Source of the DNA: Candidatus Binatia bacterium
GTDB lineage: Bacteria; Desulfobacterota; Binatia; HRBIN30
Length of the DNA: 64,000 bases
Assembly: GCA_937925685.1 (NCBI GenBank)
Contig: CALAMI010000011.1
Location: forward strand, 186,001 to 250,000
Direction of reading: 5' to 3'
Positions 10,832 through 61,341 of this stretch are shown in pieces. The notes under the pieces are model-generated. The model was not told where the DNA came from. It made no database searches and saw only the letters and a list, made by a program, of their open reading frames with translations. Made by a program: the position numbers and the translations under genes. Every line of letters starts with the position of its first letter. Position 1 is the first letter of the stretch.

Positions 10832-10878
10832 CTCGGCGGGCCCGAGGAGAGAGCCCACAGGGATACGGATCGCCGAAG

Positions 10879-11808: not shown

Positions 11809-11818
11809 GGAGGCAGCC

Positions 11819-19111: not shown

Positions 19112-19779
19112 ACGCGATGCGCGCTGTCGAACAAAGCGTGGGCAGTCGCTTAGCTCAACCCGGGCGAGAGAGCAACTGCGGGCGAGTTCGTCCGAAGACT
19201 CGACCGGAGGTCACCTGTGGTCGAGCCCTGGTGTCGCTCTCCAATGGGAACAGCTCCAGTGAGGACAGCTCGAGGTTGAGAGCAGCGCGAGGCTACCCCT
19301 GAAAGGCCACGTTCGTGCATCTGGGCCTGCCGCTGTTCGTTGAACGAGGGCGGGCTCTGGGCAGCGTTCGGTGGAGAGCCTCCTGCACACGGCGTGCAAG
19401 CGAGTGGCGCTGACGGTGGAAGGGTGTCGTGGGTCTATCGCATGAGTGAACCGCGAGCAGTCGCGCCCCCAGCCAGACCTGGCACTCACGGAGCGCCGCA
19501 CGTTACGAACAGCGAGTCCGCGGGCGGCTGCCTGGTGGACAGCGACTGCCAACGGTCGCTACCGTCGCCGGGGAACCGGGCGACTCCACGGAGCCATGGC
19601 GCCGAGCCGAGCACAGCCTGCACGATGAATCGCGATTTGCCTGGCCGGGCGGTCGTCCGGAGGGTGGCTAGCTAGGATCGCGGGCGATCCGCCGGGGTGC
19701 TTGACGATGTGAATAATGTTCAGTATCTGTGTGCCGCTCAGAACGACGTCGTGCTGGGCGGCGCAAAACGGAAGGGAGC
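19112..19779. other. Intergenic region before the CoA-thioester cluster
   Basis: About 670 bases with no convincing gene. Open frames exist but are not protein-like. It should contain the tRNA-Ala promoter on one side and that of the amidohydrolase-thiolase unit on the other. An AT-rich patch near 19705-19730 is the best promoter candidate, without a clear -35/-10 pair. Confidence 0.45.
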
Positions 19780-20652
19780 ATGGAACAGTTGGAAAAGATC
19801 GGGGCGGTCGACGCCTGGGCGTCGCTCATTACGCCGGAGGCAGCGCGGCTGTGGCCGGAAGAATTTCGGCACATCTTCCGGCGTTACAAGGTAGAAGAGC
19901 GCATGACCCGCGGCATGACCGTCGAGGACATGATTGCCGAGATGGACGCTGCCGACGTGGAGATGGCCGTCTTCTCAGCGTTCCACTACGGCGATCTGAA
20001 GATCATGCCGAATGAACAAGTGGCGGAGTACGTTCGCCGCTTCCCCGAGCGCTTCGTCGGCGCCGGCACAGTGGATCCTCGCCGACGCCCTATGGAGGTG
20101 CTTCGAGAACTGGAGCACATGGTCCACGACCTGGGGCTGCGTATTTTGCGGCTCGAGCCTTACGCATACGGGGACGGTATGACCGGGGCGCCACCGAATC
20201 ACAAGATGTATTGGCCGATCTACGTGAAATGCGCCGAGCTCGGTGTGCCCGTGGCTATTCAAGTCGGTCACACCGGGCCGCGGCTGCCATCGGAACCGGG
20301 CCGCCCAATATACTTGGACGAGGTGGCGCTTGCCTTTCCGGAATTGACCATCATTGGCTGTCACCTGGGTCAACCTTGGCACGAGGAGATGATGATTCTG
20401 GCATGGAAGAATCCCCACGTCTACGTCGAGACCTCGGCGCGCCCGGCGAAGTTTTGGCCGGAATCCTTCAAAGAGTTCGTGCGGGGCTACGGGCAGGACA
20501 AGGTCATCTGGGCAACCGACTACCCGCTGGTATCGTTCGAGCGGGCTCGACGCGATGTCGAAGATCTCGGACTACCCCACGAAGTGAAACGCAAGCTTTT
20601 GCGTGATAACGCCATGCGCGCGTTGAAGATCCGAATCGGAACGGATCTATGA
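19780..20652 (+). CDS. Amidohydrolase-2 family protein lacking the HxH motif
   Basis: A 290-residue TIM-barrel protein of the amidohydrolase_2/ACMSD superfamily: AVFSAFHYGD, VGAGTVDPRR, VAIQVGHTG, IIGCHLGQPW, VYVETSA and WATDYP are the barrel-strand motifs. The usual N-terminal metal motif (D-x-H-x-H) reads VDAWAS, so both strand-1 histidines are missing while the later His and Asp are kept. Such enzymes decarboxylate or hydrolyse carboxylates. The start is the ATG at 19780, just after GAAGGGAG. The stop overlaps the thiolase start by 4 bases, so it is the first gene of the CoA cluster. Confidence 0.82.
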   Translation: MEQLEKIGAVDAWASLITPEAARLWPEEFRHIFRRYKVEERMTRGMTVEDMIAEMDAADVEMAVFSAFHYGDLKIMPNEQVAEYVRRFPERFVGAGTVDPRRRPMEVLRELEHMVHDLGLRILRLEPYAYGDGMTGAPPNHKMYWPIYVKCAELGVPVAIQVGHTGPRLPSEPGRPIYLDEVALAFPELTIIGCHLGQPWHEEMMILAWKNPHVYVETSARPAKFWPESFKEFVRGYGQDKVIWATDYPLVSFERARRDVEDLGLPHEVKRKLLRDNAMRALKIRIGTDL

Positions 20653-21794
20653 GAACGCAAACGAGCGCTGCTTGTATTGCGGGAGTGGGCCACACGGCGG
20701 TTGCAGCGCGGCTCGGGCGTTCGGCCTGGGAACTCCAGGCCGATGCCGTGGTCCAGGCGGTTGCCGATGCCGGTCTTCGCCCTTGCGACGTAGACGGCTT
20801 GCTCACGGAGCCCGGCTACTCTCAGGGTGTGATCGAGGGCGTCACGCCTCACTTTCTTCGCCTCGGGGCGATGCTGGGGCTGGATCCTCGCTTCACGGGC
20901 TCCGAGGTTCTCGGTGGCGCCAGCGCGGTGGCCATGGTGCAACGCGCAGCAATGGCCGTCGCGAACGGCCTGTGCGAGGTGTGCGTCTGCGTGTACGGGG
21001 ACGCCCCTTCGCAGGCACCGGGTGTCTGGGGTTACAGTCGTGGTGACGGCGCGGCATTTGGTTTTTTTGGGGCACCCGGCATCCACGCGTTGGCTGCTGC
21101 GCGCCACATGGCATTGTACGGGACGCGGCCCGAGCAGCTCGGGGAGATTGCCGTGACTTTTCGGCACCACGCCCGCCTGACCCCCCATGCACAACAACGT
21201 GCACCCATGACGCTCGAGGATTATCTCGCCTCCCCGTACGTGGTCGAGCCCCTGCGCGTGCTGGATTGCTGCCAGATATCCGACGCCGGTGCCGCTGTCG
21301 TGATCACTTCCCGCGAGCGCGCACGAGATCTGAAGCACCCCCCGGTAGCGATTGCAGGGTTCAGCCAAGCCCACTGTTTAACGAGCTTGGTCAACGACGA
21401 TTACCTTACCACGTTGCCCGCTCGCCGCGCAGCCCCCGAGGCATTCGCCATGGCGGGCGTCACACCCGGCGATGTAGACTTGGCCGAACTTTACGACTGC
21501 TTCACCATTGTCGTGCTCTTGCAGCTGGAAGACTACGGGTTTTGCAAGAAAGGCGAGGGCGGTGGGTTTGTCGACAACGGCGGCCTGGCACTGACGGGGC
21601 GTCTGCCCACGAACACCGCTGGCGGGCTGCTGTCGGAAGGTTTCGGCGGCGGGATGCTGCACATCGTCGAAGCGGTGCGCCAGTTGCGTGGCGAGTGTGG
21701 GCTGCGGCAAGTGCGCGAGGCCGAGGTGGCACTGGTCAGCGGGTACGGGCTTGGCATGAACACGCACGCGACAGTGATTCTCACCAGAGGTTGA
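20649..21794 (+). CDS. SCP2-thiolase-like protein (thiolase or acyl-CoA aldolase)
   Basis: A 381-residue thiolase-fold protein of the SCP2-thiolase / lipid-transfer type. It has GGASAVAMVQRAAMAVANG where classical thiolases hold the nucleophilic Cys, ELYDCFTIVVLLQLE, and NTAGGLLSEGFGGGMLHI plus a final SGYGLGMNTHATVIL. Lack of the first Cys argues against a simple degradative thiolase. Members paired with a DUF35 partner (Ltp2 with ChsH2 in steroid breakdown) are retro-aldolases. The DUF35 gene follows immediately here, so an aldolase or carbon-carbon lyase complex on an acyl-CoA is the best inference. Confidence 0.87.
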   Translation: MRTQTSAACIAGVGHTAVAARLGRSAWELQADAVVQAVADAGLRPCDVDGLLTEPGYSQGVIEGVTPHFLRLGAMLGLDPRFTGSEVLGGASAVAMVQRAAMAVANGLCEVCVCVYGDAPSQAPGVWGYSRGDGAAFGFFGAPGIHALAAARHMALYGTRPEQLGEIAVTFRHHARLTPHAQQRAPMTLEDYLASPYVVEPLRVLDCCQISDAGAAVVITSRERARDLKHPPVAIAGFSQAHCLTSLVNDDYLTTLPARRAAPEAFAMAGVTPGDVDLAELYDCFTIVVLLQLEDYGFCKKGEGGGFVDNGGLALTGRLPTNTAGGLLSEGFGGGMLHIVEAVRQLRGECGLRQVREAEVALVSGYGLGMNTHATVILTRG

Positions 21795-21795
21795 A

Positions 21796-22209
21796 ATGAA
21801 CGAAGCTCGCCCGCTGCCAGCGCCCGACGAGGTCACCCGGCCGTTTTGGTCTGCTTGCGCGGAACATCGGCTGTGCTTCCAGCAGTGTCGGGCTTGTGGT
21901 TACCGCTGGCTTCCGGCGTCGGTCGTGTGCCCCCGCTGCTGGGCAGGGGAGTGCGACTGGGTTCCCAGCGAGGGCGAGGGCACTGTTTTCAGTTTGGCGG
22001 TGTATCATCGTGCCTACCATCCCGCCTTCCAGGCACTCCTGCCTTACGTGGTGGCAGTGATCGAGCTTGCGGAGGGTCCCCGCCTGGTGAGCAACTTGGT
22101 GGGCGTGCAGCCGCAAGACGTTTCCGTGGGCATGGCGGTCAGGCTGGAGTTTCTCGATCTGGACGACAGGGCACTGCCGTTGTTCCGGCCGCGCACGCGA
22201 GGCGGGTGA
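21796..22209 (+). CDS. DUF35 Zn-ribbon/OB-fold protein
   Basis: A 137-residue protein: an N-terminal helix (TRPFWSACAEHRL), a four-Cys zinc ribbon (CRACG, then VCPRC), and a C-terminal OB-fold (GTVFSLAVYHRAYHPAF, LVSNLVG). DUF35 proteins associate with thiolase-like enzymes and organise the CoA substrate site. The gene starts one base after the thiolase stop, consistent with a stoichiometric complex. It is followed by enoyl-CoA hydratase after 3 bases. Confidence 0.88.
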   Translation: MNEARPLPAPDEVTRPFWSACAEHRLCFQQCRACGYRWLPASVVCPRCWAGECDWVPSEGEGTVFSLAVYHRAYHPAFQALLPYVVAVIELAEGPRLVSNLVGVQPQDVSVGMAVRLEFLDLDDRALPLFRPRTRGG

Positions 22210-22212
22210 CCC

Positions 22213-23004
22213 GTGGCGGTGAGAGTGGAAGAACACGGTCAGGTATGGGTGATCGTCATCGATCGGCCCGAGGCACACAACGCCATCGATCGCGACACCG
22301 ACCAGGCGCTTGTCGCAGCGTGGGAACGATTCCGGGACACGGAGCAGTGCCGAGTGGCCGTACTCACGGGAGCTGGCGACCGCGCGTTTTGCGCCGGTGC
22401 GGATCTGCGGGGCGTCGGGGAGTTCTACCGCGCGCTCACCTCTGCGCAACGTCTCGCCCTAGCCGAAAGCCGACCGGGCCTCGGTGGAATCACCCGGAAT
22501 CTGCAAATCTGGAAGCCCATCATTGCTGCAATCCACGGGTACTGTCTGGGCGGAGGCTTCGAGCTGGCCCTGGCCTGCGATCTCCGCATTGCCTCGGTCC
22601 AGGCAAGCTTCGGACTGCCCGAGGTTACCTGGGGCATCTTGCCCGGAGCCGGCGGCACGCAACGGCTGGTGCGGATCGCTCCTCTGGGCGCTGCGCTCGA
22701 ACTCATCTTGACCGGCGACACCATCACGGCGGCCGACGCATACCGGCTTGGCGTGGTCAACCGAGTGGTGCCGCCCGCCGAACTCCTGCCAACGGCTCTA
22801 GCGCTTGCCGATCGCATCGCCCGTAACGGGCCGCTGGCCGTTCGCGCAGCAAAGGAGGCGGTTTACCGCGGGCTGCACCTGCCACTGAACGAAGCGCTGC
22901 TTCTCGAGCAGTTGCTCGCCGAACCAGTGCGGCAGAGCGACGACGCCCAAGAAGGTCCTCGGGCGTTTGCCGAGAAGCGCCAGCCGATCTTTCGCGGGCG
23001 CTAA
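22213..23004 (+). CDS. Enoyl-CoA hydratase/isomerase (crotonase family)
   Basis: A 263-residue crotonase-fold enzyme. It has the oxyanion-hole loops RAFCAGADLRG and GYCLGGGFELALACDLRIA, and the catalytic-Glu region FGLPEVTWGILPGAGGTQRL, close to true hydratases. It hydrates an unsaturated acyl-CoA and would produce the beta-hydroxy substrate for the neighbouring thiolase/DUF35 complex. The start is a GTG at 22213, 3 bases after the DUF35 stop. Confidence 0.92.
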   Translation: MAVRVEEHGQVWVIVIDRPEAHNAIDRDTDQALVAAWERFRDTEQCRVAVLTGAGDRAFCAGADLRGVGEFYRALTSAQRLALAESRPGLGGITRNLQIWKPIIAAIHGYCLGGGFELALACDLRIASVQASFGLPEVTWGILPGAGGTQRLVRIAPLGAALELILTGDTITAADAYRLGVVNRVVPPAELLPTALALADRIARNGPLAVRAAKEAVYRGLHLPLNEALLLEQLLAEPVRQSDDAQEGPRAFAEKRQPIFRGR

Positions 23005-23037
23005 CGAATTTGGAAGTTTCGTACTGCGAGGTGTACG

Positions 23038-24021
23038 ATGAGCAAGAAGAGGCCGAACCCCGCTCGGACCGCCAGCTCGCCCCTCCGAGGGGGGCAGCGG
23101 AGGAAGTCCGTCGGTGATTTCGTGCGCCGCGGCGACTTTTCGGGATACTGGGAGACTCGGATCAGCCAGGCCTCGGCAGGTGCAATTCTCGTGCGTGGGT
23201 ATCCGGTGGAGGATCTGATCGAACACCTTTCCTACATCGAAAGTCTGTGGCTCATCGTTCGCGGCGAGCTTCCGAACGAGGATCAGGCTGCGCTTCTCGA
23301 CCTGGTGCTCCGTAGCGGCATGGATCAGCAGTTTGTCAACTCGGCCGTGTGCGCGGCGCGCTTTACCGCTTCGGCGTTTCCCGAGTCGCCAATTCCTGGC
23401 ATCGCCAGCGGCATGCTCGCCACCGGCTCCGTCACCGGTTCTCCTCAAGAATGCGCCGAGATGCTCGTCGAGGCATTGCACCGCAAGCGTCGAGAACACC
23501 GATCCGCATCGGTCGCCGCGCGGGCTGTGGTTGCCAGCCGACTCCGGACCAAGGGTTATGTGCCCGGATTCGGACACCCGCTTCACCACGTCCGTGAGCC
23601 GCGCGCCGAGACCCTGCGCCGCCTGGTGCAAGAGCGAGGCGGCTGGGGTCCGGTGGGCAACCTGCTCGATGCCATTGGTGTGGCGTTGGCCACGGCGAAA
23701 AAACACCCGCTGCCCATGAACTTGGCCGGTGCCATGGCTGCTTGCATGGTCGATCTTGGCTGGCATCCCCTGGAGATCGGTGCCCTCGGTGCCATCGGAT
23801 ACGCGCCCGCCTTGCTCGCGCACGTGGTCGAGGAAATCCGCCAGGGGGTGCCGTTGCGCATCATCCCCGACGGGCTCGGAGCCCGTTACTCTGGTCGCGC
23901 TAGACGCCCCCTTCCGGTCGACGTTCTAGCCCGAGGAGGCGCGGGCCTGCAGCCGACGAAAACCCATCGCCGAGGAAATCGCAAGCTCGCGGACGATGGG
24001 CACGAGAGGTCGCCGGCATGA
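23038..24021 (+). CDS. Citrate synthase/citryl-CoA lyase-like protein
   Basis: A 327-residue protein with the citrate-synthase fold: ILVRGYPVEDLIEHLSYIESLWLIVRGELP, then GMLATGSVTGSPQ and GFGHPLHHVREPRA (the second catalytic His). The first active-site His motif (HGGAN) is absent and the C-terminal catalytic Asp region is not recognisable; the last 50 residues are basic and atypical. It resembles the citryl-CoA-lyase side of the family more than citrate synthase. The ATG at 23038 follows GAGGTGTACG, and the stop overlaps the ligase start by 4 bases. It probably cleaves or forms a C-C bond on a CoA thioester in this pathway. Confidence 0.78.
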   Translation: MSKKRPNPARTASSPLRGGQRRKSVGDFVRRGDFSGYWETRISQASAGAILVRGYPVEDLIEHLSYIESLWLIVRGELPNEDQAALLDLVLRSGMDQQFVNSAVCAARFTASAFPESPIPGIASGMLATGSVTGSPQECAEMLVEALHRKRREHRSASVAARAVVASRLRTKGYVPGFGHPLHHVREPRAETLRRLVQERGGWGPVGNLLDAIGVALATAKKHPLPMNLAGAMAACMVDLGWHPLEIGALGAIGYAPALLAHVVEEIRQGVPLRIIPDGLGARYSGRARRPLPVDVLARGGAGLQPTKTHRRGNRKLADDGHERSPA

Positions 24022-25568
24022 TCCACCCCTATTCTTACTATTTGGCGCGCGCCGCAGCTCTCTGGCCAACGAAGACCGCGGTCATCGACGGCGACACCTC
24101 CCTGTCGTATGCCCGACTCGACGAACGGGCGAGCCGGTTGGCGGCCTCGTTAATCGCTCTTGGCGTCGAGCGGGGCGATCGCGTGGCCATCGTGCAGCAA
24201 AACAACCACCGCTACCTCGAGGCCGTCTGCGGGGTGGCACGCGCCGGCGCGGTGTTCGTGCCCATGCTGGGGGTGCTCACGGAGCGGGAACACGCCAGTA
24301 TCGTGGCCGACGCCGGCGCGCGGCTGTTGATCACCTTGGGAGAGGAAGGAACCGAGCGGGCCCGACGCTTGCGCGCCCAGGGTTGCGACATCACGACCGT
24401 CGGTCCCGACGCGGGCGAAAGCGACTACGAGCACTTGCTCGCGAGCCATCAGCCACACGACCCACGGTTCGATCGCGAGCCAGAGGAGCTGGCACAAATT
24501 CTGTACACGTCGGGTACCACCGGCAGACCCAAGGGGGTGATGCACTCGCTCGCGAGCACTGCAGCCGCAATCGGGGCCTGGGTGCATGGCTTAGGCATCC
24601 GCCACGACGACCGCTTGCTCGGTCATTTCGCCCTGAGCCATTTTGGAGGGCGGGTGATGGACTCTGCGTTTTGCACCGGCGCCACGCTGGTGATCCTGCC
24701 GCGTCCCGATCCGGCCCGGATCCTTGCCGCCATTGCCGAGCAGCGGATTACCGTCGTGCTCATGGTTCCTACCCTGATGCAGATGCTCCTCGATCACCCG
24801 GACGCACCCCATGCGGATTTTTCGAGCTTGCGCATCGTCCTCTATGCGGCTGCCCCGGCGTCGCCCACTCTCGTGCAGCGTGCCCTGAAGGCCTTTGGTC
24901 CGATCCTCGTCACTGGATTCGGGCAGACCGAAGCTTACGGCTTGAGCACCATCTTGTCCGCCACGGAACATTGCGTCGCCCTGGAAAGCGACAGTAACCG
25001 GCTTGCCTCGATTGGGCGCGAAGCCGATGGGTGGGTGCAGGTTCGCTTGCTCGACCCGGACGGCCGGGAGACCTCGCCCGGCGAAGTCGGCGAGATCTGC
25101 ATCTGCGCACCGTGGGTGATGAAGGGCTATTGGAATCGACCAGACCTGACCGCAGAGACCTTGAAGGGCGGCTGGTTGCATACGCGCGACCTCGGTCGCC
25201 AGGACGAGAATGGTTACTTCTACCTCGTCGACCGCAAAGACGACATGATCATCAGCGGCGGCTACAACGTCTACCCGCGCGAAGTCGAAGACGTGATTGC
25301 CGCGCTCCCCGGTGTGCGGGAGTGCTGTGTGGTCGGTGTACCCGATGAGAAATGGGGCGAAGCGGTGCATGCGATCGTCGTGGCCGAAGGGCTGACCGAG
25401 GTTGAAGTGATCGAGCACTGCAAGGCTCATCTTGCCGCCTTCAAGGTGCCCAAAGGTGTCAGCTTCGTTGCCGAGCTGCCGAAAAGCACCGTGGGCAAAA
25501 TCCTGCGCCGGGCCGTGCGGGAACCGTTCTGGAAGGGTCGCACCCGCCGGGTTCACGGTGCACGGTAG
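24018..25568 (+). CDS. Acyl-CoA synthetase (AMP-forming)
   Basis: A 516-residue ANL-superfamily ligase. It has the P-loop-like LYTSGTTGRPKG, the aromatic/Gln motif TGFGQTEAYGL, the hinge region YFYLVDRKDDMIISGGYNVYPREVE and the C-terminal Lys in LPKSTVGKILRR. It activates a carboxylic acid to its CoA thioester, the expected entry step of the cluster. The substrate cannot be deduced. It overlaps the upstream gene by 4 bases. Confidence 0.93.
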   Translation: MIHPYSYYLARAAALWPTKTAVIDGDTSLSYARLDERASRLAASLIALGVERGDRVAIVQQNNHRYLEAVCGVARAGAVFVPMLGVLTEREHASIVADAGARLLITLGEEGTERARRLRAQGCDITTVGPDAGESDYEHLLASHQPHDPRFDREPEELAQILYTSGTTGRPKGVMHSLASTAAAIGAWVHGLGIRHDDRLLGHFALSHFGGRVMDSAFCTGATLVILPRPDPARILAAIAEQRITVVLMVPTLMQMLLDHPDAPHADFSSLRIVLYAAAPASPTLVQRALKAFGPILVTGFGQTEAYGLSTILSATEHCVALESDSNRLASIGREADGWVQVRLLDPDGRETSPGEVGEICICAPWVMKGYWNRPDLTAETLKGGWLHTRDLGRQDENGYFYLVDRKDDMIISGGYNVYPREVEDVIAALPGVRECCVVGVPDEKWGEAVHAIVVAEGLTEVEVIEHCKAHLAAFKVPKGVSFVAELPKSTVGKILRRAVREPFWKGRTRRVHGAR

Positions 25569-25633
25569 GGAACGGCGCTGCAGTCGTGAACACAGCTCAT
25601 GAGTGACGAGGCACGAGTTCTGGGAGGTAACCC

Positions 25634-26782
25634 ATGGCATTCCCCCCGTTTACGGAAGAGCACCAGATGTTCCGCGAGGCCGTACGCACGTTTGCCGAGA
25701 AGGAAATCGCGCCGCATGCGGAAGCGTGGGATCGCGAACAAAGCTTCCCGCGCGAGCTGTTTCGCAAGGCTGGCGCCCAGGGCTTTCTCGGTGTGCGGTT
25801 CGACCCGGCATATGGAGGCAGCGGCCTCGACTACTGGTTCACTGGCATCCTCATCGAAGAACTCATGCGTGGCCGCAACGTGGGCGTGGTCGTTGGCCTC
25901 ATGGTGCAGTGTGAAATTGCCACCAGTGTCATCCACGCCTACGGGTCGGAGGATCTGAAGCGGGAGTGGCTCGTTCCAGCCATCCGCGGTGAACGCATCG
26001 CAGCGCTCGGGATCACCGAGCCGGCAGCCGGATCGAACGTTGCCGGGCTTCGCACCACGGCTCGCCGCGAGGGCGACGTCTATGTCATCAACGGTTCGAA
26101 GATCTTCATCACCAACGGTACCATCGCCGACTTTGTCACTCTCGCGGTGCGCACCGGCGGACCCGGACCGGGCGGCATCAGCGTGCTCGTAGTTCCCACC
26201 GCCACCCCCGGCTGCAGCGTTGGGCGCAAGCTACGCAAAGTCATGGCGCACGCCTCCGACACTGCGGAGCTGTTTTTCGACAACTGCCGCGTGCCCGCAA
26301 CGAACCTGGTTGGCGAAGAGGGCCGGGGTTTCTCCTACATCATGCGCCTTTTCCAGGGCGAGCGCTTGGTGCTCGCCTACATTGCCAACAGTTGGATGCG
26401 GGAAATCCTGGACGAGACCCTGCGGTACGCGCGCGACCGGGAGGTCTTCGGAAGCAAGATTGCCGATATGCCCGTGTGGCGCCACCGCCTTGCCGATCTC
26501 ATGGCACAGCTCGAGGCGTCTCGTACCTTGACCTGGTACGCCACCGAACTCTTGTGTGCCGGCGATTCCCAGGCGGAGGTGTATGTCTCGATGGCCAAGC
26601 TCGTCGCTGGCGAACTCTTCAAGCGCTTTGCGGCCGAGTGCGATCAAGTGTTTGGTGGCTATGGCTGCATGGAAGAGTACTTGGTTGCGCGCGCCTCGGG
26701 GGGAATCAGCGGTTTCGCAATTGGCGCCGGGACGAGCGAGATCATGCGCGAGATCATTGCCCGGCGGTGGATCGGAAAATGA
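25634..26782 (+). CDS. Acyl-CoA dehydrogenase
   Basis: A 382-residue flavoprotein of the acyl-CoA dehydrogenase family: FTEEHQMFREAVRTFAEKEIAP at the start, the FAD-binding ALGITEPAAGSNVAGLRT, and the catalytic Glu in FGGYGCMEEYLVAR. It desaturates an acyl-CoA, making the substrate for the hydratases of the cluster. GGGAGG precedes the ATG at 25634. The stop overlaps the thioesterase start. Confidence 0.93.
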   Translation: MAFPPFTEEHQMFREAVRTFAEKEIAPHAEAWDREQSFPRELFRKAGAQGFLGVRFDPAYGGSGLDYWFTGILIEELMRGRNVGVVVGLMVQCEIATSVIHAYGSEDLKREWLVPAIRGERIAALGITEPAAGSNVAGLRTTARREGDVYVINGSKIFITNGTIADFVTLAVRTGGPGPGGISVLVVPTATPGCSVGRKLRKVMAHASDTAELFFDNCRVPATNLVGEEGRGFSYIMRLFQGERLVLAYIANSWMREILDETLRYARDREVFGSKIADMPVWRHRLADLMAQLEASRTLTWYATELLCAGDSQAEVYVSMAKLVAGELFKRFAAECDQVFGGYGCMEEYLVARASGGISGFAIGAGTSEIMREIIARRWIGK

Positions 26783-27264
26783 CGAGTACGAGGCTGAACG
26801 ACCGAAGAGCGGAGGAACTCCGGGCCGCCGTGGAACAGGGCATTCCCTTCTTGACCAAGGTCCGGGTGGTCGTCGAGGAAATCACGCCCGGGCGCGTTCG
26901 CTTGCGCTTTCCCCACGATCCCACCAACGCCAATTACCTCGGCACCACACACGCGGCAGCTATCTTCGCGTTCGGCGAAACGTGCGCCGGCCTGGCCGCA
27001 GGTGCGTCGTTCGACTTGGCACGGTTGCACATGGTCGCGCGCCACGCCGCCATCGAATTTCGGGAGCCGGTGACCGGTGAACTGGTAAGCGTGGTGGAGA
27101 TTCCCGCCGATACCATAACGAGAGTCATGGAGAGTCTTGAACGCGCCGGCCGGGCCTCGCTCCCTGTGAAGGTCACGATGCACAACACGGCGGGGGAAAT
27201 GGCGGCGGAAATGACGGTGGAATACGCCTTCCGTAAGCTGCCAAGAACGCGGCACGTCGCCTGA
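26779..27264 (+). CDS. Hotdog-fold thioesterase (DUF4442/PaaI-like)
   Basis: A 161-residue single-hotdog protein. It has FLTKVRVVVEEITPGRVRLRFP, then the GTTHAAAIFAFGETCAG helix and AAIEFREPVTGELVS, typical of DUF4442/PaaI thioesterases that release CoA from dead-end or aromatic acyl-CoAs. The ATG at 26779 overlaps the acyl-CoA dehydrogenase stop (ATGA). It is the last gene before a 1 kb gap. Confidence 0.85.
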   Translation: MTSTRLNDRRAEELRAAVEQGIPFLTKVRVVVEEITPGRVRLRFPHDPTNANYLGTTHAAAIFAFGETCAGLAAGASFDLARLHMVARHAAIEFREPVTGELVSVVEIPADTITRVMESLERAGRASLPVKVTMHNTAGEMAAEMTVEYAFRKLPRTRHVA

Positions 27265-28258
27265 AAGGACGGCGGAACAGCATGCGAGAGGGAACGGCCA
27301 GCCAGGCTCCCCGCGCGGGCGAGACCTTGGCCGCAGGGGAGGTAGCCCGCTGGTGCGGCACGGAGTTCCATCCGGCGGATGGATGCGGTTGCGCCGTGGG
27401 GATCCGTGCGCTCGCCACCAGTTGCCGGGGTCCGACAATGGTGGCGGAACTGCAATTCAGGGCGTCCGCCCATCAGACGAGCGGCGGAAGTACCTTCGAT
27501 CAAACCCTGTCTCCTATGCGCTGCCACCTTGGGCCTCGAGGACGGTTGGCCTCCGACCTGGATGCCCGCGTCTTCCGCACCGACCATGGTCGTGCGTTGC
27601 CCCTTTCGAGTGCCTATCGGCTTCTCGTCGACTGGCGCTCCCACAGCGAGTCTCCGGGGTTGCAAGCGCGATTTTGCCTGACGCCTCCGGCACCGTCGTC
27701 TACCCGAAGGGCAGCCAGGCCGAGCGACGAGTGCCCGAGATTGCCGCTGTTCTCGCCTGCGCTGCCACGGCAGACGAGGGGGGTGCGCTTCGCAAACCAC
27801 GCCCGCCGTGGACGCGTCTCTCATGCACGCGGGCCCATAGAAGACGGCGAAGTTATTCGCGTCCGAGCCGCTGCAAAGGGCCGCGATGGGCTGCCGACTT
27901 CGGCCGGGAGCCGCGTGGCCTCGACGGAGCTGCTGCGCGGGATGGCGCATCCAGGGTGCGCGGTTGTTGTGGCAGCAAGCCTTCGTTTGGTCGAGCGTTT
28001 TCCAAAAGGCTTCCCTCCGCGAGGATCTCGCGGTGGTTCGCGCGAGGGGCTCCGGCCGCGAACACTTTCCCGTGGAATTGCGATCGCTCGTCGAGCAAGG
28101 GCTGTTCGCTTTCCGCGAGTCAGTCGCCCACTGCTTCCCCTCGCACCAGGGAAACACTGCTTTCGACACCTCCGCGGTCGAAATCGGGACGCGTGTACCA
28201 GCGATCGCGCTGCCGCACGCATCACGATCACAGCATAGAGAAGAGAAAGGAGAAGAGC
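27265..28258. other. 1 kb gap inside the CoA cluster
   Basis: No recognisable gene lies between the thioesterase and the second crotonase. Very long frames are open on both strands, but the translations are Arg/Ala/Pro-rich and without domains. A decayed gene is possible. The last 20 bases carry the AAAGGAG ribosome site of the next gene. Confidence 0.5.
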
Positions 28259-29011
28259 ATGCGTTACGAATGTTTGACGGTGGAAACGAAAGATCACGTG
28301 CGCACGATCCGCTTGAACCGTGAAGAGAAACGCAATGCCCTGTCGATGAAAATGCGCGACGAGATCGAAGCGTGCTTTTGCGACGCGGATCAAGATCGCC
28401 ACGTAGCCGTTGTCGTCCTCACCGGCGACGAGCGCGTCTTCAGTGCCGGGTTCGATCTGCAAGAGGTCGTCCAGACGCAGTTTCGAACGTTTCGTCACCG
28501 GGCCGAAGAGTTCGCCCAGGCGGTATTCGGGTTTTCGAAACCAGTGATCACGGCTGTCAGTGGCCCGGCTCTGGCAGGCGGCTTCGATCTTGCGCTCGCT
28601 GGTGACTTCATCATTGCCTCGGAAACAGCGGTCTTCGGTCATCCTGAGGTCGACTTTGGCGCTCCGCCCGCAGTGGCCGTGCTGTGGACGCGTGTGGGCC
28701 TAGCTAAAGCCAAGGAGCTAGCGATGCTGGGCTCCCGACTGACCGCCGAAGAAGCCCTGCGCATCGGTCTGGTCAGCCGCGTCGTGCCAGTGGAGCGTTT
28801 GCTCCTCGAGAGTTTGGAACTGGCACGGAAACTCGCTGCGAAACCGCCGGCGGCTTTGCGGGCCACGAAGGTTGCATTTCGGCGCATCGCTGCCCTCGAT
28901 CTGTTCGCGGCAATGCAACTCGAGGCCCAGTTGGGCGAGCAAGCACTGAGCGATCCGGACAATCTGGCACGCGCTGCGGCGCATTTTGCCAGGGTGAAAG
29001 ACAAGCCGTGA
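28259..29011 (+). CDS. Enoyl-CoA hydratase/isomerase, second copy
   Basis: A 250-residue crotonase-fold protein with RVFSAGFDLQEV and GPALAGGFDLALAGDFIIA as oxyanion-hole loops and FGHPEVDFGAPPAVA in the active-site region. The GAGGT segment of true hydratases is replaced, so isomerase or another crotonase activity is possible. The ATG at 28259 (AAAGGAG upstream) is much better supported than the long upstream frame. It is only distantly similar to the crotonase at 22213. Confidence 0.88.
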   Translation: MRYECLTVETKDHVRTIRLNREEKRNALSMKMRDEIEACFCDADQDRHVAVVVLTGDERVFSAGFDLQEVVQTQFRTFRHRAEEFAQAVFGFSKPVITAVSGPALAGGFDLALAGDFIIASETAVFGHPEVDFGAPPAVAVLWTRVGLAKAKELAMLGSRLTAEEALRIGLVSRVVPVERLLLESLELARKLAAKPPAALRATKVAFRRIAALDLFAAMQLEAQLGEQALSDPDNLARAAAHFARVKDKP

Positions 29012-56642: not shown

Positions 56643-56809
56643 TGAACGAAAGTTTATGAATCAACCGAACGACAAGTCAACGTGGTTTTCCGAAACAGGA
56701 ACACTTGCCTTAGGGGACCAAGTCGAGCCTTGAGGCCTGCTTTCTCGCTGTCAGCTCCGAGCCGATGGAGCGTTGAAATCCGCTCGATGTGAGGGTAGCG
56801 TTCCTGCGC

Positions 56810-57556
56810 ATGAGTTCTTCTGTCGGCAAGGTCCGCTTGTATTTGCTGGGCCGCTTAGCCGCAGTGCCTTCCTCGCATCCTCTGAAAAGGATGGCGCGGG
56901 CGTTGCGTTTGAGTCGCTGGGTGCCCTGGATTTCCAACAAGTATTACTCGGAGCTCGGCTGGCAGAATCGTTGGGCTCCCGTATTTCAGGCGAACATCGA
57001 TAAAGTGCGGCAGTACTGGCATGAGTATCGGTACTTCGATGACATTTGGCGCATCGTCCAGCCCAGCGAGGAAACGCGAATTCTCGATGTGGGGTGTGGC
57101 ATCAGCACGGTCTTGCATTTCCTGCCCGGAAAGCGCTTTGGCATCGATCCCCTCGCGGAAGAGTACAAGAGGATTTATCGGTATCCGATGGGGATGGATA
57201 TCCGCCGGGGCTTTGGCGAAGCCATTCCCTTCCCCAATGGATCGTTCGATGTGGTGTTTTGCTCGAACGTTCTGGACCATACCACGGACCCCGTGCGTGT
57301 TGTGGAAGAAATCCACCGCGTGTTGCGCCCCGCAGGATACCTCGTCCTTGCCGTAGAAATTTTTCCGTCAGTGCGAGAGCGCGATCTTTCCCACCCGCAT
57401 GCCTTCACGCGCGAGCAAGTGAAGGCACTCCTGGGCGAGCGCTTCGAGACCGTGTTCGCCAGGGAATCGCCCTGGATCATGCTGCTGCATTATGTTGACG
57501 GGTCGATGAAGCGCGAGGGAGACCAGCTAGTACTGGTGGGCCGGAAAAAAAGCTAA
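56810..57556 (+). CDS. Class I SAM-dependent methyltransferase
   Basis: About 248 residues. The SAM site is ILDVGCGISTVLH (motif I), a YPMGMDIRRG segment, and FDVVFCSNVLDHTTDP (motif IV/post). A Methyltransf_11-type C-terminal half is visible. The substrate is unknown. An upstream GTG at 56789 would add seven residues. It is followed after 4 bases by the hydroxyacid dehydrogenase, so the two are probably one operon. Confidence 0.88.
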   Translation: MSSSVGKVRLYLLGRLAAVPSSHPLKRMARALRLSRWVPWISNKYYSELGWQNRWAPVFQANIDKVRQYWHEYRYFDDIWRIVQPSEETRILDVGCGISTVLHFLPGKRFGIDPLAEEYKRIYRYPMGMDIRRGFGEAIPFPNGSFDVVFCSNVLDHTTDPVRVVEEIHRVLRPAGYLVLAVEIFPSVRERDLSHPHAFTREQVKALLGERFETVFARESPWIMLLHYVDGSMKREGDQLVLVGRKKS

Positions 57557-57560
57557 CAGC

Positions 57561-58619
57561 ATGGTCAACGTCCTGGCGCTCAATTGCAACGAGCACGAGG
57601 GTTTGTTGAACGCGCTCGTAGCCCACTTGCCCGTGCGCGTGTCGTTTGCCCGTTTCGACTTACCTTGGGAGGAGATCGCTGCGCGACGCCGCGGGGTAAC
57701 CACGGGGTGCGTGACGCCGGTTTCTGCCGAACTCGCGCGAGCTCTCTCCGAGGCGGAAGTGATTTTTGGGTTCAGCTTGCCGGCGGAGACAAGCGTGTTG
57801 GCACCGTACTTGCGGTGGGTGGAGACCCCGGCAACGGGGTTCGACCAACTGCGCTTTACCGGGGTTCTCGAAAATCCTGCGATCGCCGTCACCACAGTCG
57901 GGGGACTGTTCGCGCCGGAGGTTGCGGAGCACGTATTTGCGCTGCTTTTGGCACTGAGCCGTCGCATTCCCTTCTTTGCCGAGGCGCAACGGAATTGCCA
58001 GTGGCTACCTGGCCCGGTGATGGAGCTACGCGGTCGCACGTTGGCGATCATTGGCTTGGGAAACATCGGCACAGCGGTCGCGCGCTTGGCACGAGCCTTT
58101 GGCATGGTTGTCACTGCCACGCGCCCGCGCCGGCGGGTGCTGCCGGCGGGATTGGTGGACAAGCTTTACGATCGCCACGACCTCGGGGAAATGCTGTCGG
58201 CGGCGGATGCGGTGGTGGTCAGTGTCAGCGGTGACGAGGCCAACCGCGGCTTGCTCGGTGCCCGCGAGTTCGAGCGCATGAAACCCTCGGCGTTTCTCGT
58301 CAATGTGTCTCGCGGGTTCGTGCTCGACGAAGAGGCGCTGGTTGCCGCGTTGCGGGAGGGTCAAATTGCAGGAGCTGGTCTCGACGTGTTCGTGGAGGAG
58401 CCTTTACCCGTGACCAGTCCGCTTTGGTCGTTGCCCAATGCCATCCTGACGCCGCACGTGGCCATCACGCTGGCATCGCGCTTGCCGCGATGCATGGAAC
58501 ATTTCGCCACGAACCTTGCACGCTATTGCCGTGGGGAGCCACTGCAAGACCTGGTGGAGCAGATGCCTCGGGATCGGAGCCTCAGCGAAGCGCCTCACGG
58601 AGGTCGGGCAACCGAGTGA
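57561..58619 (+). CDS. D-2-hydroxyacid dehydrogenase
   Basis: A 352-residue NAD-dependent dehydrogenase of the D-isomer-specific family. It has the Rossmann motif IGLGNIGTAVARLARAFGM, the substrate Arg near NRGLLG, and ILTPHVA with the catalytic His. The N-terminal part is divergent. It reduces or oxidises a 2-keto/2-hydroxy acid; given the neighbouring trio, 2-keto acids such as sulfopyruvate are possible but unproven. Its 3' end overlaps the convergent HAD gene by 38 bases. Confidence 0.9.
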   Translation: MVNVLALNCNEHEGLLNALVAHLPVRVSFARFDLPWEEIAARRRGVTTGCVTPVSAELARALSEAEVIFGFSLPAETSVLAPYLRWVETPATGFDQLRFTGVLENPAIAVTTVGGLFAPEVAEHVFALLLALSRRIPFFAEAQRNCQWLPGPVMELRGRTLAIIGLGNIGTAVARLARAFGMVVTATRPRRRVLPAGLVDKLYDRHDLGEMLSAADAVVVSVSGDEANRGLLGAREFERMKPSAFLVNVSRGFVLDEEALVAALREGQIAGAGLDVFVEEPLPVTSPLWSLPNAILTPHVAITLASRLPRCMEHFATNLARYCRGEPLQDLVEQMPRDRSLSEAPHGGRATE

Positions 58620-59340
58620 GGCAAAAGCTCGCGACCGCGCGTTGCTCTGCAGGGGCTTGCTGCGGCACCAGCCAAGCTGTTTCCATGCCGATGCGGTGGG
58701 GACCGTGAACATCCTCCTCGAAGCTATCGCCGACGAACAGAGCCTCTTCCGCAGCGACACCGATGGCCCCGAGAGCGCAACGGAAAATGGCCGGGTGCGG
58801 TTTGCGCCACCCGACGTCGGCCGAGACGACGACGACGTCGAGTTCGCGGTGGAGGTGAGCTCGTTCGAGAACGGCATGGACACTAGCGGCATCGTCGAAG
58901 TTGGAAACGACGCCGACGCGCATCCCAAGCGCATGGCAGTACTGAATGAGTTGCTTTGCCTCGGTGTCGACACTGCAGTGCTCGCAGAGGGCGGCGCGGT
59001 GGGTTTGCACGATCCGATCGAGCGCGGAGCGGATTGTTTCTTCGGGCCAAGCGAGACGGCGAAAGGTCAACTCGTATCGATAGGCGAGGGGAATCTCGCG
59101 ATGGAATTGGCGGCGGATGAGAGCTAGTTCGCGAGTGACGGCTTCGAAGGTGTCCAGCAAATGATCCGTTGCGGCCTGCGGATGCTCAACTGCGAATCTG
59201 GCAAACACTTCGCGCATGGCCGGACGCCAACTAGGCGCGTCGACGCGCATCATGGGTGCCCGTTCCCCCACAGTGACGAGGGTACGGAAGGCATCGAACA
59301 AGACCGCTCGATAGCGGGGATGGGACGAGCAGCGGTTCAC
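58582..59340 (-). CDS. HAD-family hydrolase
   Basis: About 252 residues from a GTG at 59340 that overlaps the ATP-grasp stop by 4 bases. Motif I is VLFDAFRTLV (DxFxT), motif II VVSNFDD, motif III is the Lys in VGWRKPHP, and motif IV VGDSFEEDV. The cap is of the C1 type between motifs I and II. It probably removes phosphate from a small metabolite. It is the third gene of the ComA-like/ATP-grasp/HAD unit. Confidence 0.88.
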   Translation of the reverse strand: MNRCSSHPRYRAVLFDAFRTLVTVGERAPMMRVDAPSWRPAMREVFARFAVEHPQAATDHLLDTFEAVTRELALIRRQFHREIPLAYRYELTFRRLAWPEETIRSALDRIVQTHRAALCEHCSVDTEAKQLIQYCHALGMRVGVVSNFDDAASVHAVLERAHLHRELDVVVVSADVGWRKPHPAIFRCALGAIGVAAEEALFVGDSFEEDVHGPHRIGMETAWLVPQQAPAEQRAVASFCLTRLPDLREALR

Positions 59341-60608
59341 TTGCACTTTGCTCTTTGGCCCTCTGCGGTTTGGAGTTCGTCTGTTTGGGGTGTCAGCAAT
59401 GAGCGCAGCCGCTTGCGCCATACCTTGGCGGTAGCGAGCAGGCGATGCGCGCTCCAAAGCTTCCACTCTCCTGGATACCACATAGCCTCGATGACCCGCT
59501 TCGATTGGCGCAAGGAACGCAGGAGTTCTTGCTCTTGGGGATTGCGGTTCAGTGCCACGTGGTAATCGAACACGAAAAAGCAGTCGTTCCGTTGCGAGGA
59601 AGCGAGCAGTTCTGGCAACGCCTCTGGCCAGGCGAAATCCGCATACTGGATAAGAGGTAGGTTGATACCCGAAGCCGTGGCCAATTTGATCCATGACCAG
59701 GTTCGACCGTTGATTTCGATGAGTTTGTAGGTACGGTCGCGCGAATCGAACTTGAACTCCACTTGGGTGATCCCGTGAATGCCCGCCGTCTCGAGTAACC
59801 TGCGGGCGTATGCGATCACCTCTTCGGGTAAGTTCGTGCTCTCCGCGATGCTGGCGCTGCCGTGGGTGAAGGGCCACTGAGTGAGCTTGCGTCCAGTGTA
59901 GCTGGCCAGCACCTTGCCCTCGCGGTTACTGTAGGAGCCTACGGTGACCAGTGTGGACGAGTCGCCGGGAATATTCTCGGCCAGTTGAAACAACCTGCCC
60001 GAATGGTGCCGGGCGATATCCCCGAGGCTACGCTTTAAGGCGTCGAGGTCCTTGACCACTCGTAACCGAAAGGCGGGAGCACCTTCCTGGACCACGCGAG
60101 CGACTGGCTTGAGAATGAGCGGAAAGCGCAGGCCGTTTAAGTCAGGCACCTCGCCGCCGCGGAAATGCACGTGAGATGGCGTCGGTACTCCGAGCTGCTT
60201 TGCCAGAGCGTACTGCCAACTCTTTTGAAACAGAGACCGGCCGAGGCGTGGGTTGGTGGGCACGAAATAGTATTGCGTGAGCGCTTCGTAGTGCTCGATC
60301 AACTGTTCGAGTTGTTCGTCCGTGCTGGGAAAAAGTACGCCTCGGTCGGGGAGTCGAGGGCCGAGAGCCAGTAAAACGTCGGCTAAGGCGCCCTGACCAT
60401 GCCGGGGGAGAAAGACGGTGTCTTGCACGAAGCGGGAGAAGCGCCCGAGCCGCGGGGGCCAGCGCCGCTCCACACAGACGATCGGCACTCCGGCTGGCCC
60501 GAGCGAGTGAATGAGCCCGATGCCGCCGGTTTCCGGATCCAGAATAACGGCTGGCTTCTGGTTCCTCTGGGGCAAGTGCGGGGTGGAGTTAAACCATCGT
60601 GTCTGCAC
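59337..60608 (-). CDS. ATP-grasp ligase, unknown substrate
   Basis: A 423-residue ATP-grasp protein. It starts with a carbohydrate/ribonucleotide-like Rossmann half (AVILDPETGGIGLIHSLG), then the ATP-grasp core (FPLILKPVAR, QVEFKFDSRDRTYKLIEINGR, the last with the metal Glu/Asn). Its family joins a carboxylate to an amine or similar nucleophile. The start overlaps the ComA-like gene by about 20 bases. Together they suggest a phosphorylated or sulfonated acid is ligated and then dephosphorylated. Confidence 0.85.
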   Translation of the reverse strand: MQTRWFNSTPHLPQRNQKPAVILDPETGGIGLIHSLGPAGVPIVCVERRWPPRLGRFSRFVQDTVFLPRHGQGALADVLLALGPRLPDRGVLFPSTDEQLEQLIEHYEALTQYYFVPTNPRLGRSLFQKSWQYALAKQLGVPTPSHVHFRGGEVPDLNGLRFPLILKPVARVVQEGAPAFRLRVVKDLDALKRSLGDIARHHSGRLFQLAENIPGDSSTLVTVGSYSNREGKVLASYTGRKLTQWPFTHGSASIAESTNLPEEVIAYARRLLETAGIHGITQVEFKFDSRDRTYKLIEINGRTWSWIKLATASGINLPLIQYADFAWPEALPELLASSQRNDCFFVFDYHVALNRNPQEQELLRSLRQSKRVIEAMWYPGEWKLWSAHRLLATAKVWRKRLRSLLTPQTDELQTAEGQRAKCK

Positions 60609-61341
60609 GCAAGCCCTGACGAATAGTTTCCAACGAGATGACCTCGCTCGGCGGGATGTTACCGAGGTTCACGTTCCGTCCGAAGCGCTTGACGAACCAA
60701 ACTTGTTGCGACTTTTGCGGGGCTTCGAAAATCACGCGCTGGATGTCAACGTTGGCTTCGATTTCTTCGACGAGCCCCATGCGGATCTCGCCGGAGTCCC
60801 GGTACAGCCCTACCGTGCCGCTTTCCCGTCCTTCGGTGACCACTTTCCAAGCTCCGGCCTCCAATTCAGCTTTGATTTGGTTCACCCAGCGGTATGGTGC
60901 GACGATCACCTCGCGGTCCTTGCTGCCGACTTCGGAGAGGACGCGGAAATCGCGAGCCAAGGTTTCGATCCAGTGCAACTTTTGGCTCATGGGGAGGGAG
61001 ATGACGCCGTCAGAAACTTCCACCAAAGATATCCCGCTCGCTTTGAGGAAACCAATGTAGTCGTCCACGCGGTTACGGATGACGGCCAACTCGAACAAAC
61101 TGCCGCCGCAACAAACCGGGATGCCGTAGGAGTGGTAGGCCTCGAGCTTTTTGTCGAGATTGCCCACGACTACAGCCGTGGCCCAACCGAGTTTCACGAT
61201 GTCGATAAATTCGGCGGCCACCTCCATTAAACTGTGGATTTCGGCAACGGACAACCCCTTGTCGAGGACGTGCGTCAATCCCTGTTCTCGTGGCTTTGCG
61301 GTCCGAGCACTGTCGCTGAAGAGTTGTTTGAGCGTCCTCAT
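60589..61341 (-). CDS. comA: Phosphosulfolactate synthase (ComA-like)
   Basis: A 250-residue TIM-barrel protein of the ComA/PSL-synthase family, which adds sulfite to phosphoenolpyruvate. Features: GLTHVLDKGLS, DIVKLGWATAVV, GIPVCCGGSLFELAV, LVEVSDGVISLP, REVIVAPYRWVNQIK and NVNLGNIPPSEVISLE. The ATG at 61341 is preferred; an ATG at 61374 would add 11 residues. In methanogens ComA leads to coenzyme M, in Bacillus spores to sulfolactate. No comB, comC, comD or comE is next to it; the neighbours are an ATP-grasp and a HAD gene. Confidence 0.85.
   Translation of the reverse strand: MRTLKQLFSDSARTAKPREQGLTHVLDKGLSVAEIHSLMEVAAEFIDIVKLGWATAVVVGNLDKKLEAYHSYGIPVCCGGSLFELAVIRNRVDDYIGFLKASGISLVEVSDGVISLPMSQKLHWIETLARDFRVLSEVGSKDREVIVAPYRWVNQIKAELEAGAWKVVTEGRESGTVGLYRDSGEIRMGLVEEIEANVDIQRVIFEAPQKSQQVWFVKRFGRNVNLGNIPPSEVISLETIRQGLRADTMV

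What the first reader, a model, noticed from the sequence alone, without database searches (positions are those of the whole stretch)
58582..61341. ComA-like phosphosulfolactate synthase with an ATP-grasp ligase and HAD hydrolase: possible new sulfonate pathway
Three overlapping minus-strand genes: PEP-sulfite synthase (ComA family), ATP-grasp ligase and HAD phosphatase. A D-2-hydroxyacid dehydrogenase and a methyltransferase face them on the other strand. The known coenzyme M genes comB-comE are absent; the HAD could replace ComB and the dehydrogenase could supply or use sulfopyruvate/sulfolactate. An ATP-grasp enzyme would then couple the sulfonate to an amine. This combination is not one I know from described pathways.
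Basis: partly seen in the sequence, partly recalled or inferred. Interest (0 to 1): 0.7.

Follow-up and report, generated by a model that had tools for sequence, protein, structure and literature searches.

The report
Sulfonate-making gene trio with amide ligase
Next to an enzyme that should join sulfite to a common sugar-breakdown product, this uncultured bacterium keeps a ligase and a swappable second-step enzyme, which together look like an undescribed route to a sulfonated compound that is not coenzyme M.

Summary
Observation confirmed: three overlapping minus-strand genes encode a ComA-family phosphosulfolactate synthase, an ATP-grasp enzyme and a HAD hydrolase; a D-2-hydroxyacid dehydrogenase converges on them. 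The genome has one ComA, no ComB, no sulfopyruvate decarboxylase above cut-off and no XcbD at E<=1e-40, so coenzyme M is unlikely.

Of 98 genomes (own included) 24 hold this ComA clade, 23 the ATP-grasp, 22 both. The second enzyme varies: an XcbC-like lyase in 20, ComB next to or near ComA in five loci, the HAD in three. All three kinds occur within one supported eight-row ComA group, as if unrelated enzymes filled one step. In two distant genomes ComA-ComB-ATP-grasp lies among exopolysaccharide genes.

Best reading: PEP + sulfite -> phosphosulfolactate -> loss of phosphate -> the ATP-grasp joins the C3 sulfonate's carboxylate to an amine, perhaps for a surface glycan. Against: the HAD lacks the second aspartate of classical HAD phosphatases, the dehydrogenase's role is unclear, no substrate is shown. 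New variant of a known kind.

The parts
60589..61341 (-). ComA-family phosphosulfolactate synthase, 250 aa (ATG start)
   Evidence: PF02679 E 2.5e-88; TIGR03849 256 bits, below its 280 cut-off; solved relatives 1u83, 1qwg; only ComA in the genome
59337..60608 (-). ATP-grasp ligase, 423 aa (GTG start), overlaps comA by 20 nt
   Evidence: PF15632 29.2 bits; AF2 model and fold search: 2pn1 Z 23.4, PylC Z 22.6, L-amino acid ligase Foldseek E 8e-15; co-occurs with ComA
58582..59340 (-). HAD hydrolase, 252 aa (GTG start chosen here), 4-nt GTGA overlap with the ATP-grasp stop; motif I FDAFRTL
   Evidence: PF13419/PF00702; coordinates and start; alignment A3; AF2 pLDDT 93
57561..58619 (+). D-2-hydroxyacid dehydrogenase, 352 aa; close homologues stand beside ComA only in the HAD variant
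   Evidence: PF02826 E 4e-53; matches at E<=1e-60 (51% identity or more) in 4 of 98 genomes, three of them beside ComA
56789..57556 (+). SAM methyltransferase, 255 aa, 4 nt upstream of the dehydrogenase; membership in the pathway uncertain
   Evidence: PF08241 E 2.6e-17; syntenic in G002; not next to the dehydrogenase on the short G014 contig

Best explanation
The locus is the HAD variant of a recurring cassette, 'ComA + one second-step enzyme + ATP-grasp', that makes a conjugated C3 sulfonate other than coenzyme M. Step 1 (inferred from family and conserved motifs): ComA adds sulfite to phosphoenolpyruvate, giving (R)-phosphosulfolactate. Step 2 (inferred from gene swapping): the phosphate is removed; in the window by the HAD, giving sulfolactate, in most relatives by an XcbC-like lyase (recalled product: sulfoacrylate), in others by ComB. 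Step 3 (inferred from fold and gene linkage): the ATP-grasp enzyme phosphorylates the carboxylate with ATP and joins it to an amine, giving a sulfonated amide; in some lineages the acceptor is plausibly an amino sugar or amino acid of a surface polysaccharide. The dehydrogenase, seen only in the HAD variant, would adjust the C2 oxidation state.
For: Gene identities. ComA-clade genomes (E<1e-70) 24 of 98, ATP-grasp (E<1e-90) 23 of 98, both in 22; Fisher p 1.4e-18, not corrected for kinship. Second-step alternatives: XcbC-like lyase (E<1e-90) in 20 of 98 genomes, all of which have ComA and ATP-grasp; ComB next to or near ComA in L038, L158, L159, L181, L182; HAD subfamily in L031, L032, L035 among 30 cassette loci (27 distinct), besides one 40-bit hit about 3 kb from ComA in L041. 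One ComA group of 8 rows (SH-aLRT 99) holds HAD (3), XcbC-like (4) and ComB (1), HAD on two separate branches. The window's ATP-grasp groups (100) with four ATP-grasps of lyase-type loci. Cassette lyases and XcbC of known clusters form one group (99) apart from ArgH and XcbD rows. Exopolysaccharide genes around two ComB versions; glycosyltransferase or flippase-like genes beside some others.
Against: No substrate of any of the proteins is shown. The HAD and its subfamily have F or Y where HAD phosphatases have the second Asp (14 of 14 aligned); its nearest solved folds mix phosphatases and dehalogenases. The HADs of the window and of G014 are 31% identical and were not recovered as sisters (4% of bootstrap trees; AU test does not reject it, p 0.237). 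No ATP-grasp was detected in G014, whose contig ends 8 nt after comA. G001, of the same genus, has neither ComA nor ATP-grasp. No glycan genes were seen among the window proteins that I scanned. ComA without these partners is common outside the class. One of the two lyases scored reaches the argH cut-off and neither the XcbC cut-off. XcbC and HAD/ComB should give different products, so one conserved ligase substrate is not obvious.
Confidence: 0.55

Rival explanations
1. Free sulfolactate is the end product (osmolyte, storage or exported sulfonate, as recalled for Bacillus spores): ComA plus HAD suffice, and the ATP-grasp and dehydrogenase serve another pathway.
For: ComA without an ATP-grasp nearby is common: 55 of 80 named loci have none of the six tested partners within 4 kb (12 of these 55 are cut by a contig end within 4 kb); seven phylum-level loci have ComA with a ComB-like gene (66-83 bits) and no ATP-grasp in the stretch fetched.
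Against: In the window's class the ATP-grasp tracks this ComA clade in 22 of 24 genomes and its gene overlaps comA here.
Confidence: 0.2
2. Coenzyme M or a close analogue is made through a partly unknown route.
For: Most relatives with this ComA carry an XcbC-like lyase, in one group with the XcbC of the bacterial coenzyme M pathway.
Against: Own genome: no ComB, no XcbD at E<=1e-40, and no XcbD above the family cut-off in any of 98 genomes, sulfopyruvate decarboxylase far below cut-off. The four Xcb clusters that I fetched (L062, L063, L186, L187) give no match to the ATP-grasp profile. ComC and epoxyalkane:CoM transferase were not searched for.
Confidence: 0.06
3. HAD and dehydrogenase are chance neighbours; only ComA and ATP-grasp act together, with an unlinked phosphatase for step 2. 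(Not exclusive of the other readings.)
For: The HAD subfamily is widespread (E<=1e-20 in 56 of 98 genomes) and lacks the second Asp of motif I; the HADs of window and G014 are not recovered as sisters.
Against: HAD and a dehydrogenase of the same kind sit beside ComA in two families in different gene orders, in genomes without the lyase and at loci without ComB.
Confidence: 0.25
4. ComA here is a non-enzymatic or differently acting homologue, as recalled for plant HSA32, and no sulfonate is made.
For: The archaeal equivalog cut-off is not reached (256 of 280 bits).
Against: Most motifs shared by the two solved phosphosulfolactate synthases are kept and many positions are invariant in 20 clade members; enzymes known or likely to act on phosphosulfolactate stand near it in relatives.
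Confidence: 0.07

Closest known systems
Archaeal coenzyme M pathway, ComA-ComB-ComC-ComDE
   Same: ComA family; some versions of the cassette also have ComB
   Different: Window genome lacks ComB and has no sulfopyruvate decarboxylase above cut-off; an ATP-grasp is added
Bacterial coenzyme M pathway of Xanthobacter autotrophicus Py2 (XcbB1, C1, D1, E1)
   Same: ComA-family first enzyme; the lyase of most relatives groups with XcbC
   Different: No XcbD above cut-off in 98 genomes; an ATP-grasp is present, of which the four Xcb clusters fetched show none; window itself lacks the lyase
Bacillus subtilis YitD (1u83; organism and gene name recalled), sulfolactate synthesis
   Same: Best solved match of the window's ComA, E 7e-52
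   Different: Linkage to ATP-grasp and HAD; B. subtilis has a ComB-family protein (control)
ATP-grasp enzymes PylC, L-amino acid ligase, and 2pn1
   Same: Fold (2pn1 Z 23.4, rmsd 3.0, 286 aligned; PylC Z 22.6, rmsd 3.2, 291 aligned; 3vot Foldseek E 8e-15)
   Different: 14-18% identity in those alignments; substrate unknown; no meaningful solved relative by sequence
HAD proteins of the DREG-2/REG-2 and haloacid dehalogenase-like kind
   Same: Sequence and fold; best NCBIfam hit 86 bits, below its cut-off of 155
   Different: FRT after D-x in the three ComA-linked copies versus FGT or YDT in the eleven others aligned

Membership tests
Phosphosulfolactate synthase (ComA, PF02679) | Full-length match above the curated cut-off | tested here: met
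   296 bits against 25.2
Phosphosulfolactate synthase, archaeal equivalog TIGR03849 | Score above 280 bits | tested here: not met
   256.1 bits; so not filed as the archaeal equivalog
Phosphosulfolactate synthase (ComA, PF02679) | Motifs shared by the solved enzymes kept (which residues are catalytic was not tested) | tested here: met
   Alignments to 1u83 and 1qwg: most motif residues kept, with conservative changes such as VKFGWGT to VKLGWAT; invariants in A1
Phosphosulfolactate synthase (ComA, PF02679) | PEP + sulfite activity | not testable with these tools
   Needs protein
Archaeal coenzyme M pathway | ComB in the genome | tested here: not met
   0 matches to PF04029; 7 of 14 controls ring
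Archaeal coenzyme M pathway | Sulfopyruvate decarboxylase in the genome | tested here: not met
   Best 28.4 bits, cut-off 221.5; 2 of 14 controls over the cut-off
Archaeal coenzyme M pathway | ComC in the genome | not tested
Bacterial (Xcb) coenzyme M pathway | XcbC and XcbD in the genome | tested here: not met
   No XcbC-like match at E<=1e-60, no XcbD at E<=1e-40 in G000
ATP-grasp superfamily | ATP-grasp fold with the acidic metal ligands | tested here: met
   Fold Z 23.4; E284 and E298 invariant in 16, N300 in 6 of 16 and T in 10 (their role as ligands is recalled)
ATP-grasp carboxylate-amine ligase | Ligation of a carboxylate to an amine | not testable with these tools
   Inferred from fold neighbours only, which also include carboxylases and purine enzymes
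HAD superfamily | Motifs I-IV and Rossmann-like core | tested here: met
   D16, S146/N147, K180, G204-D205...D210 invariant in 14; fold
Classical HAD phosphatase | D-x-D in motif I (rule recalled) | tested here: not met
   D-A-F in window and G002, D-L-F in G014; so proposed to work at a phosphatase's step, not filed as a classical phosphatase
XcbC (lyases of the relatives, NF052535) | Grouping with XcbC of known coenzyme M clusters, apart from ArgH | tested here: met
   17 cassette lyases + 4 XcbC, SH-aLRT 99
XcbC (lyases of the relatives, NF052535) | Score above 575 bits | tested here: not met
   466 and 522 bits; the second also reaches the argH cut-off (287.7 of 279.5) (two proteins); called XcbC-like only

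The most novel reading that the evidence does not exclude
A family of bacterial cassettes turns PEP and sulfite into a C3 sulfonic acid and attaches it by an ATP-grasp ligase to an amine of a surface polysaccharide or its precursor, giving sulfonated (not sulfated) exopolymers; the phosphate-removing step has been filled by at least three unrelated enzymes (ComB, XcbC-like lyase, a D-x-F HAD).
Probability: 0.3. Interest if true: 0.82.

Novelty: new variant of a known kind. Interest (0 to 1): 0.6.

Why it matters
To my knowledge ComA-type sulfonate synthesis is discussed mainly for coenzyme M; one paper states that coenzyme M genes are so far known only from methanogens and aerobic alkene-using bacteria (PMC11507031, passages seen). 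A recurring ComA + ATP-grasp cassette in genomes without XcbD above cut-off would add a biosynthetic source of organosulfonates in uncultured bacteria and perhaps a new polymer decoration. The gene swapping makes it directly testable: three unrelated enzymes should act on phosphosulfolactate. I found no description in print in the searches (open-licence full texts only; listings seen).

Tried and rejected
Coenzyme M as product: judged unlikely (ComC and epoxyalkane:CoM transferase not searched). Plain ArgH identity of the relatives' lyase: judged unlikely by the tree although one of two scored lyases reaches the argH cut-off; the window's own ArgH is elsewhere (617 bits). One origin of the ComA-linked HADs: not recovered, not rejected. 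Polysaccharide context in the window: 20 further window proteins scanned (a selection of its ORFs) show no glycosyltransferase. Pfam for the ATP-grasp gave only borderline hits; PDB by sequence nothing meaningful. Literature searches gave no description (calls in Why it matters). The primary paper on the bacterial coenzyme M pathway (10.1073/pnas.2207190119) is not held; the sulfoacrylate product of XcbC1 is recalled, and only passages of two other papers were seen. Dehydrogenase stereochemistry rests on recall plus passages of PMC5695019.

Errors of mine: two home-made profiles (HAD and ComA) each held one mis-framed member (L032 and L064), and one search's HAD tree had the same mis-framed L032 row. 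The HAD tree and profile were redone, and the whole partner scan with both profiles mended; the partner sets of the cassette loci did not change, one named locus gained a HAD hit within 4 kb. In one search the labels of L163 and L165 were set by hand because their contigs are split (partners on other contigs); 27 of the 80 named loci (every third, plus L101) were used for that tree. The L038 ATP-grasp (76 bits) was's tree and left out's because of a very long branch. One search ended in a script error after its trees; one search repeated the last part.
Full report
OBSERVATION. ComA (60589-61341, minus) matches PF02679 at E 2.5e-88 and aligns over residues 12-249 with the solved phosphosulfolactate synthase 1u83 (E 7e-52) and over 19-249 with 1qwg (E 5e-48); it misses the archaeal equivalog cut-off (256 of 280 bits). 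The next gene (59337-60608) is an ATP-grasp protein: borderline by Pfam, clear by fold, with a model of pLDDT 82 and pTM 0.83 whose best solved matches are 2pn1 (Z 23.4, rmsd 3.0, 286 aligned), PylC (Z 22.6) and an L-amino acid ligase (Foldseek E 8e-15). The third (58582-59340, from the GTG that overlaps the ATP-grasp stop as GTGA) is a HAD protein, model pLDDT 93. ComA and ATP-grasp overlap by 20 nt. A D-2-hydroxyacid dehydrogenase (57561-58619, plus) converges on the HAD with a 38-nt overlap, and a methyltransferase (56789-57556) lies 4 nt before it. Against sister species G002 all are under purifying selection.

NOT COENZYME M, PROBABLY. The window's genome (3.70 Mb, 51 contigs, 95% complete) has one ComA, no ComB, a sulfopyruvate decarboxylase match of only 28 bits against 221.5, no XcbC-like protein at E<=1e-60 and no XcbD at E<=1e-40; none of 98 genomes has XcbD above the family cut-off. 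ComC and epoxyalkane:CoM transferase were not searched for.

WHAT GOES WITH COMA. Of 98 genomes searched (own included), 28 match ComA at E<=0.001, 24 with E<1e-70. The ATP-grasp profile matches 44 at E<=1e-10 and 23 with E<1e-90; 22 of the 23 are among the 24. The two ComA genomes without it are G014 (its contig ends 8 nt after comA) and G041 (a divergent ATP-grasp, 76 bits by my profile, lies 2 kb away); the one ATP-grasp without ComA, G059, ends near a contig edge. Fisher p 1.4e-18, not corrected for kinship. Of the 22, G065 and G090 have the genes on split contigs; the other 20 have them together. G001, of the window's genus, has neither.

THE SWAPPED SECOND STEP. In 20 of the 98 genomes (E<1e-90) a lyase of about 500 aa belongs to the cassette, in the order ATP-grasp, lyase, ComA (G065 and G090 on split contigs). 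Of two such lyases scored, NCBIfam gives 466 and 522 bits to XcbC (cut-off 575) and 269 and 288 to argH (cut-off 279.5, which the second one reaches). In a tree, 17 such lyases and four XcbC from known coenzyme M clusters form one group (SH-aLRT 99) without the ArgH and XcbD rows. In five other loci ComB is next to or near ComA: L038 (135 bits to PF04029), L158 (113), L159 (124.5), L182, and L181 with one gene between (192 and 202 bits to my own four-sequence ComB profile). The HAD subfamily is found in three of the 30 loci that hold ComA with an ATP-grasp or are L035 (27 distinct; L065, L066 and L086 repeat L034, L036 and L039): L031 (window), L032 (G002) and L035 (G014); besides these there is a 40-bit hit about 3 kb from ComA in L041. 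These three loci show neither ComB nor the lyase, and their genomes have no lyase at E<=1e-60; ComB was sought genome-wide only in G000. The dehydrogenase follows the HAD: at E<=1e-60 it occurs in 4 of 98 genomes, three of them these, the fourth (G007) without ComA. The orders differ (DH-HAD-ATP-grasp-ComA in the window; ComA pointing away from HAD-DH in G014), so this is not mere shared synteny.

On the ComA tree (78 rows; 27 of the 80 named loci used) the window lies in a group of 8 (SH-aLRT 99) that holds HAD (3), lyase (4) and ComB (1); G014 (HAD) pairs with G012 (lyase; 95), apart from the window pair. The window's ATP-grasp groups with four ATP-grasps of lyase-type loci (100). So HAD and lyase change places while ComA and ligase stay. 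I take this as replacement of one function, removal of phosphate from phosphosulfolactate, by unrelated enzymes. Outside the class ComA often stands without these partners: 55 of 80 named loci have none of six within 4 kb (12 of the 55 are cut short), and seven of 20 phylum-level stretches have ComA with a ComB-like gene but no ATP-grasp (28 of 395 phylum genomes match ComA at E<=1e-15, and stretches of 18 of them were fetched).

SURROUNDINGS. L181 and L182 carry ComA, ComB and ATP-grasp among exopolysaccharide-type genes: between them UDP-GlcNAc 2-epimerase, glycosyltransferases of two families, an aminotransferase, a capsule-synthesis PGA_cap protein, exosortase EpsH, a FemAB/GNAT-type protein, sub-threshold 'sugar-transfer' ATP-grasps and B12-radical SAM proteins. 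Glycosyltransferases stand next to the ATP-grasp in L039 and L046 and between ComB and ATP-grasp in L038; a flippase-like gene stands before the ATP-grasp in the f4 loci L036 and L065. Of the f9 loci only two neighbours were scanned (a phosphatase and a radical SAM protein), and the window proteins scanned include no such gene, so the glycan link is a lead for part of the group only. Four f4 loci (L033, L034, L036, L037) also carry a short fumarate-reductase/aspartate-oxidase-like flavoprotein between ATP-grasp and lyase; sulfoacrylate is a close mimic of fumarate (recalled chemistry), so reduction to sulfopropanoate is conceivable. The same flavoprotein family is within 4 kb of ComA in 24 of 80 named loci, mostly MAGs labelled Actinobacteria.

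MECHANISM AND WEAK POINTS. Shown here: gene identities, overlaps, co-occurrence, swapping. Inferred: PEP + sulfite -> phosphosulfolactate (family); loss of phosphate by HAD (swapping); ATP-dependent joining of the carboxylate to an amine (fold). The weakest step is the HAD: the second Asp of motif I is Phe, and F or Y in all 14 subfamily members aligned, a pattern recalled from 2-haloacid dehalogenases; the three ComA-linked copies have Arg after it (FRT), the other eleven FGT or YDT. Its nearest solved folds include phosphatases and dehalogenases alike. The window and G014 HADs are not recovered as sisters. The dehydrogenase is of the D-type; by recall the known D-type sulfolactate dehydrogenase acts on (S)-sulfolactate, while ComA and ComB give the (R) form (PMC5695019 passages), so it may not act directly on the HAD product. 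If the lyase yields sulfoacrylate and HAD/ComB yield sulfolactate, the ligase must accept either or the products must converge; I cannot say which.

ORGANISM. Loci of order-level relatives G011 and G009 match contigs titled 'uncultured bacterium isolate Bacteria sp. RBC016' and 'Deltaproteobacteria bacterium isolate OFTM157', and that of class-level relative G060 one titled 'Deltaproteobacteria bacterium isolate DP_23'.

VERDICT. Observation confirmed; interpretation partly supported and extended. New variant of a known kind: known first step, known superfamilies, an undescribed combination as far as the searches went.

Noticed in passing
L162 2993-10249 and other contigs of G015: One class-level relative carries 14 ComA-like matches, the best at about 30% identity, some in tandem; no ATP-grasp match at E<=1e-10 in that genome.
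   Followed up: partly
L067-L132, for example L073:7745-9756: In 24 of 80 named ComA loci a short fumarate-reductase/aspartate-oxidase-like flavoprotein lies within 4 kb of ComA, in L073 overlapping it; polysaccharide genes are nearby in some.
   Followed up: partly
L089-L144, for example L118:5652-11565: In about 20 Bacteroidota loci ComA sits in a gene row with CpsB/CapC, an epimerase, a TPR protein, an undecaprenyl-phosphate translocase-like protein and a shikimate dehydrogenase domain protein.
   Followed up: no
L064:5589-10460 (Legionella lytica plasmid): ComA is fused behind an AMP-ligase and a carrier domain (970 aa), next to ComB and an aminotransferase.
   Followed up: no
L181 and L182: ComA-ComB-ATP-grasp with a B12-binding radical SAM protein inside exopolysaccharide-type loci, one with exosortase EpsH.
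   Followed up: partly
L158:6948-9038: The ATP-grasp of G087 is fused to a methyltransferase domain; the window has a separate methyltransferase near its cassette.
   Followed up: no
L159:2886-4040: An enolase-superfamily (mandelate racemase-like) gene follows ComA-ComB-ATP-grasp in G095.
   Followed up: no
window 19729-29011: Amidohydrolase, thiolase-like, citrate-synthase-like, AMP-ligase, acyl-CoA dehydrogenase and enoyl-CoA hydratase genes in a row.
   Followed up: no
window 10651-14454: S66 LD-carboxypeptidase, beta-lactamase-fold protein and a Mur-ligase-like gene in a row, possibly muropeptide recycling.
   Followed up: no
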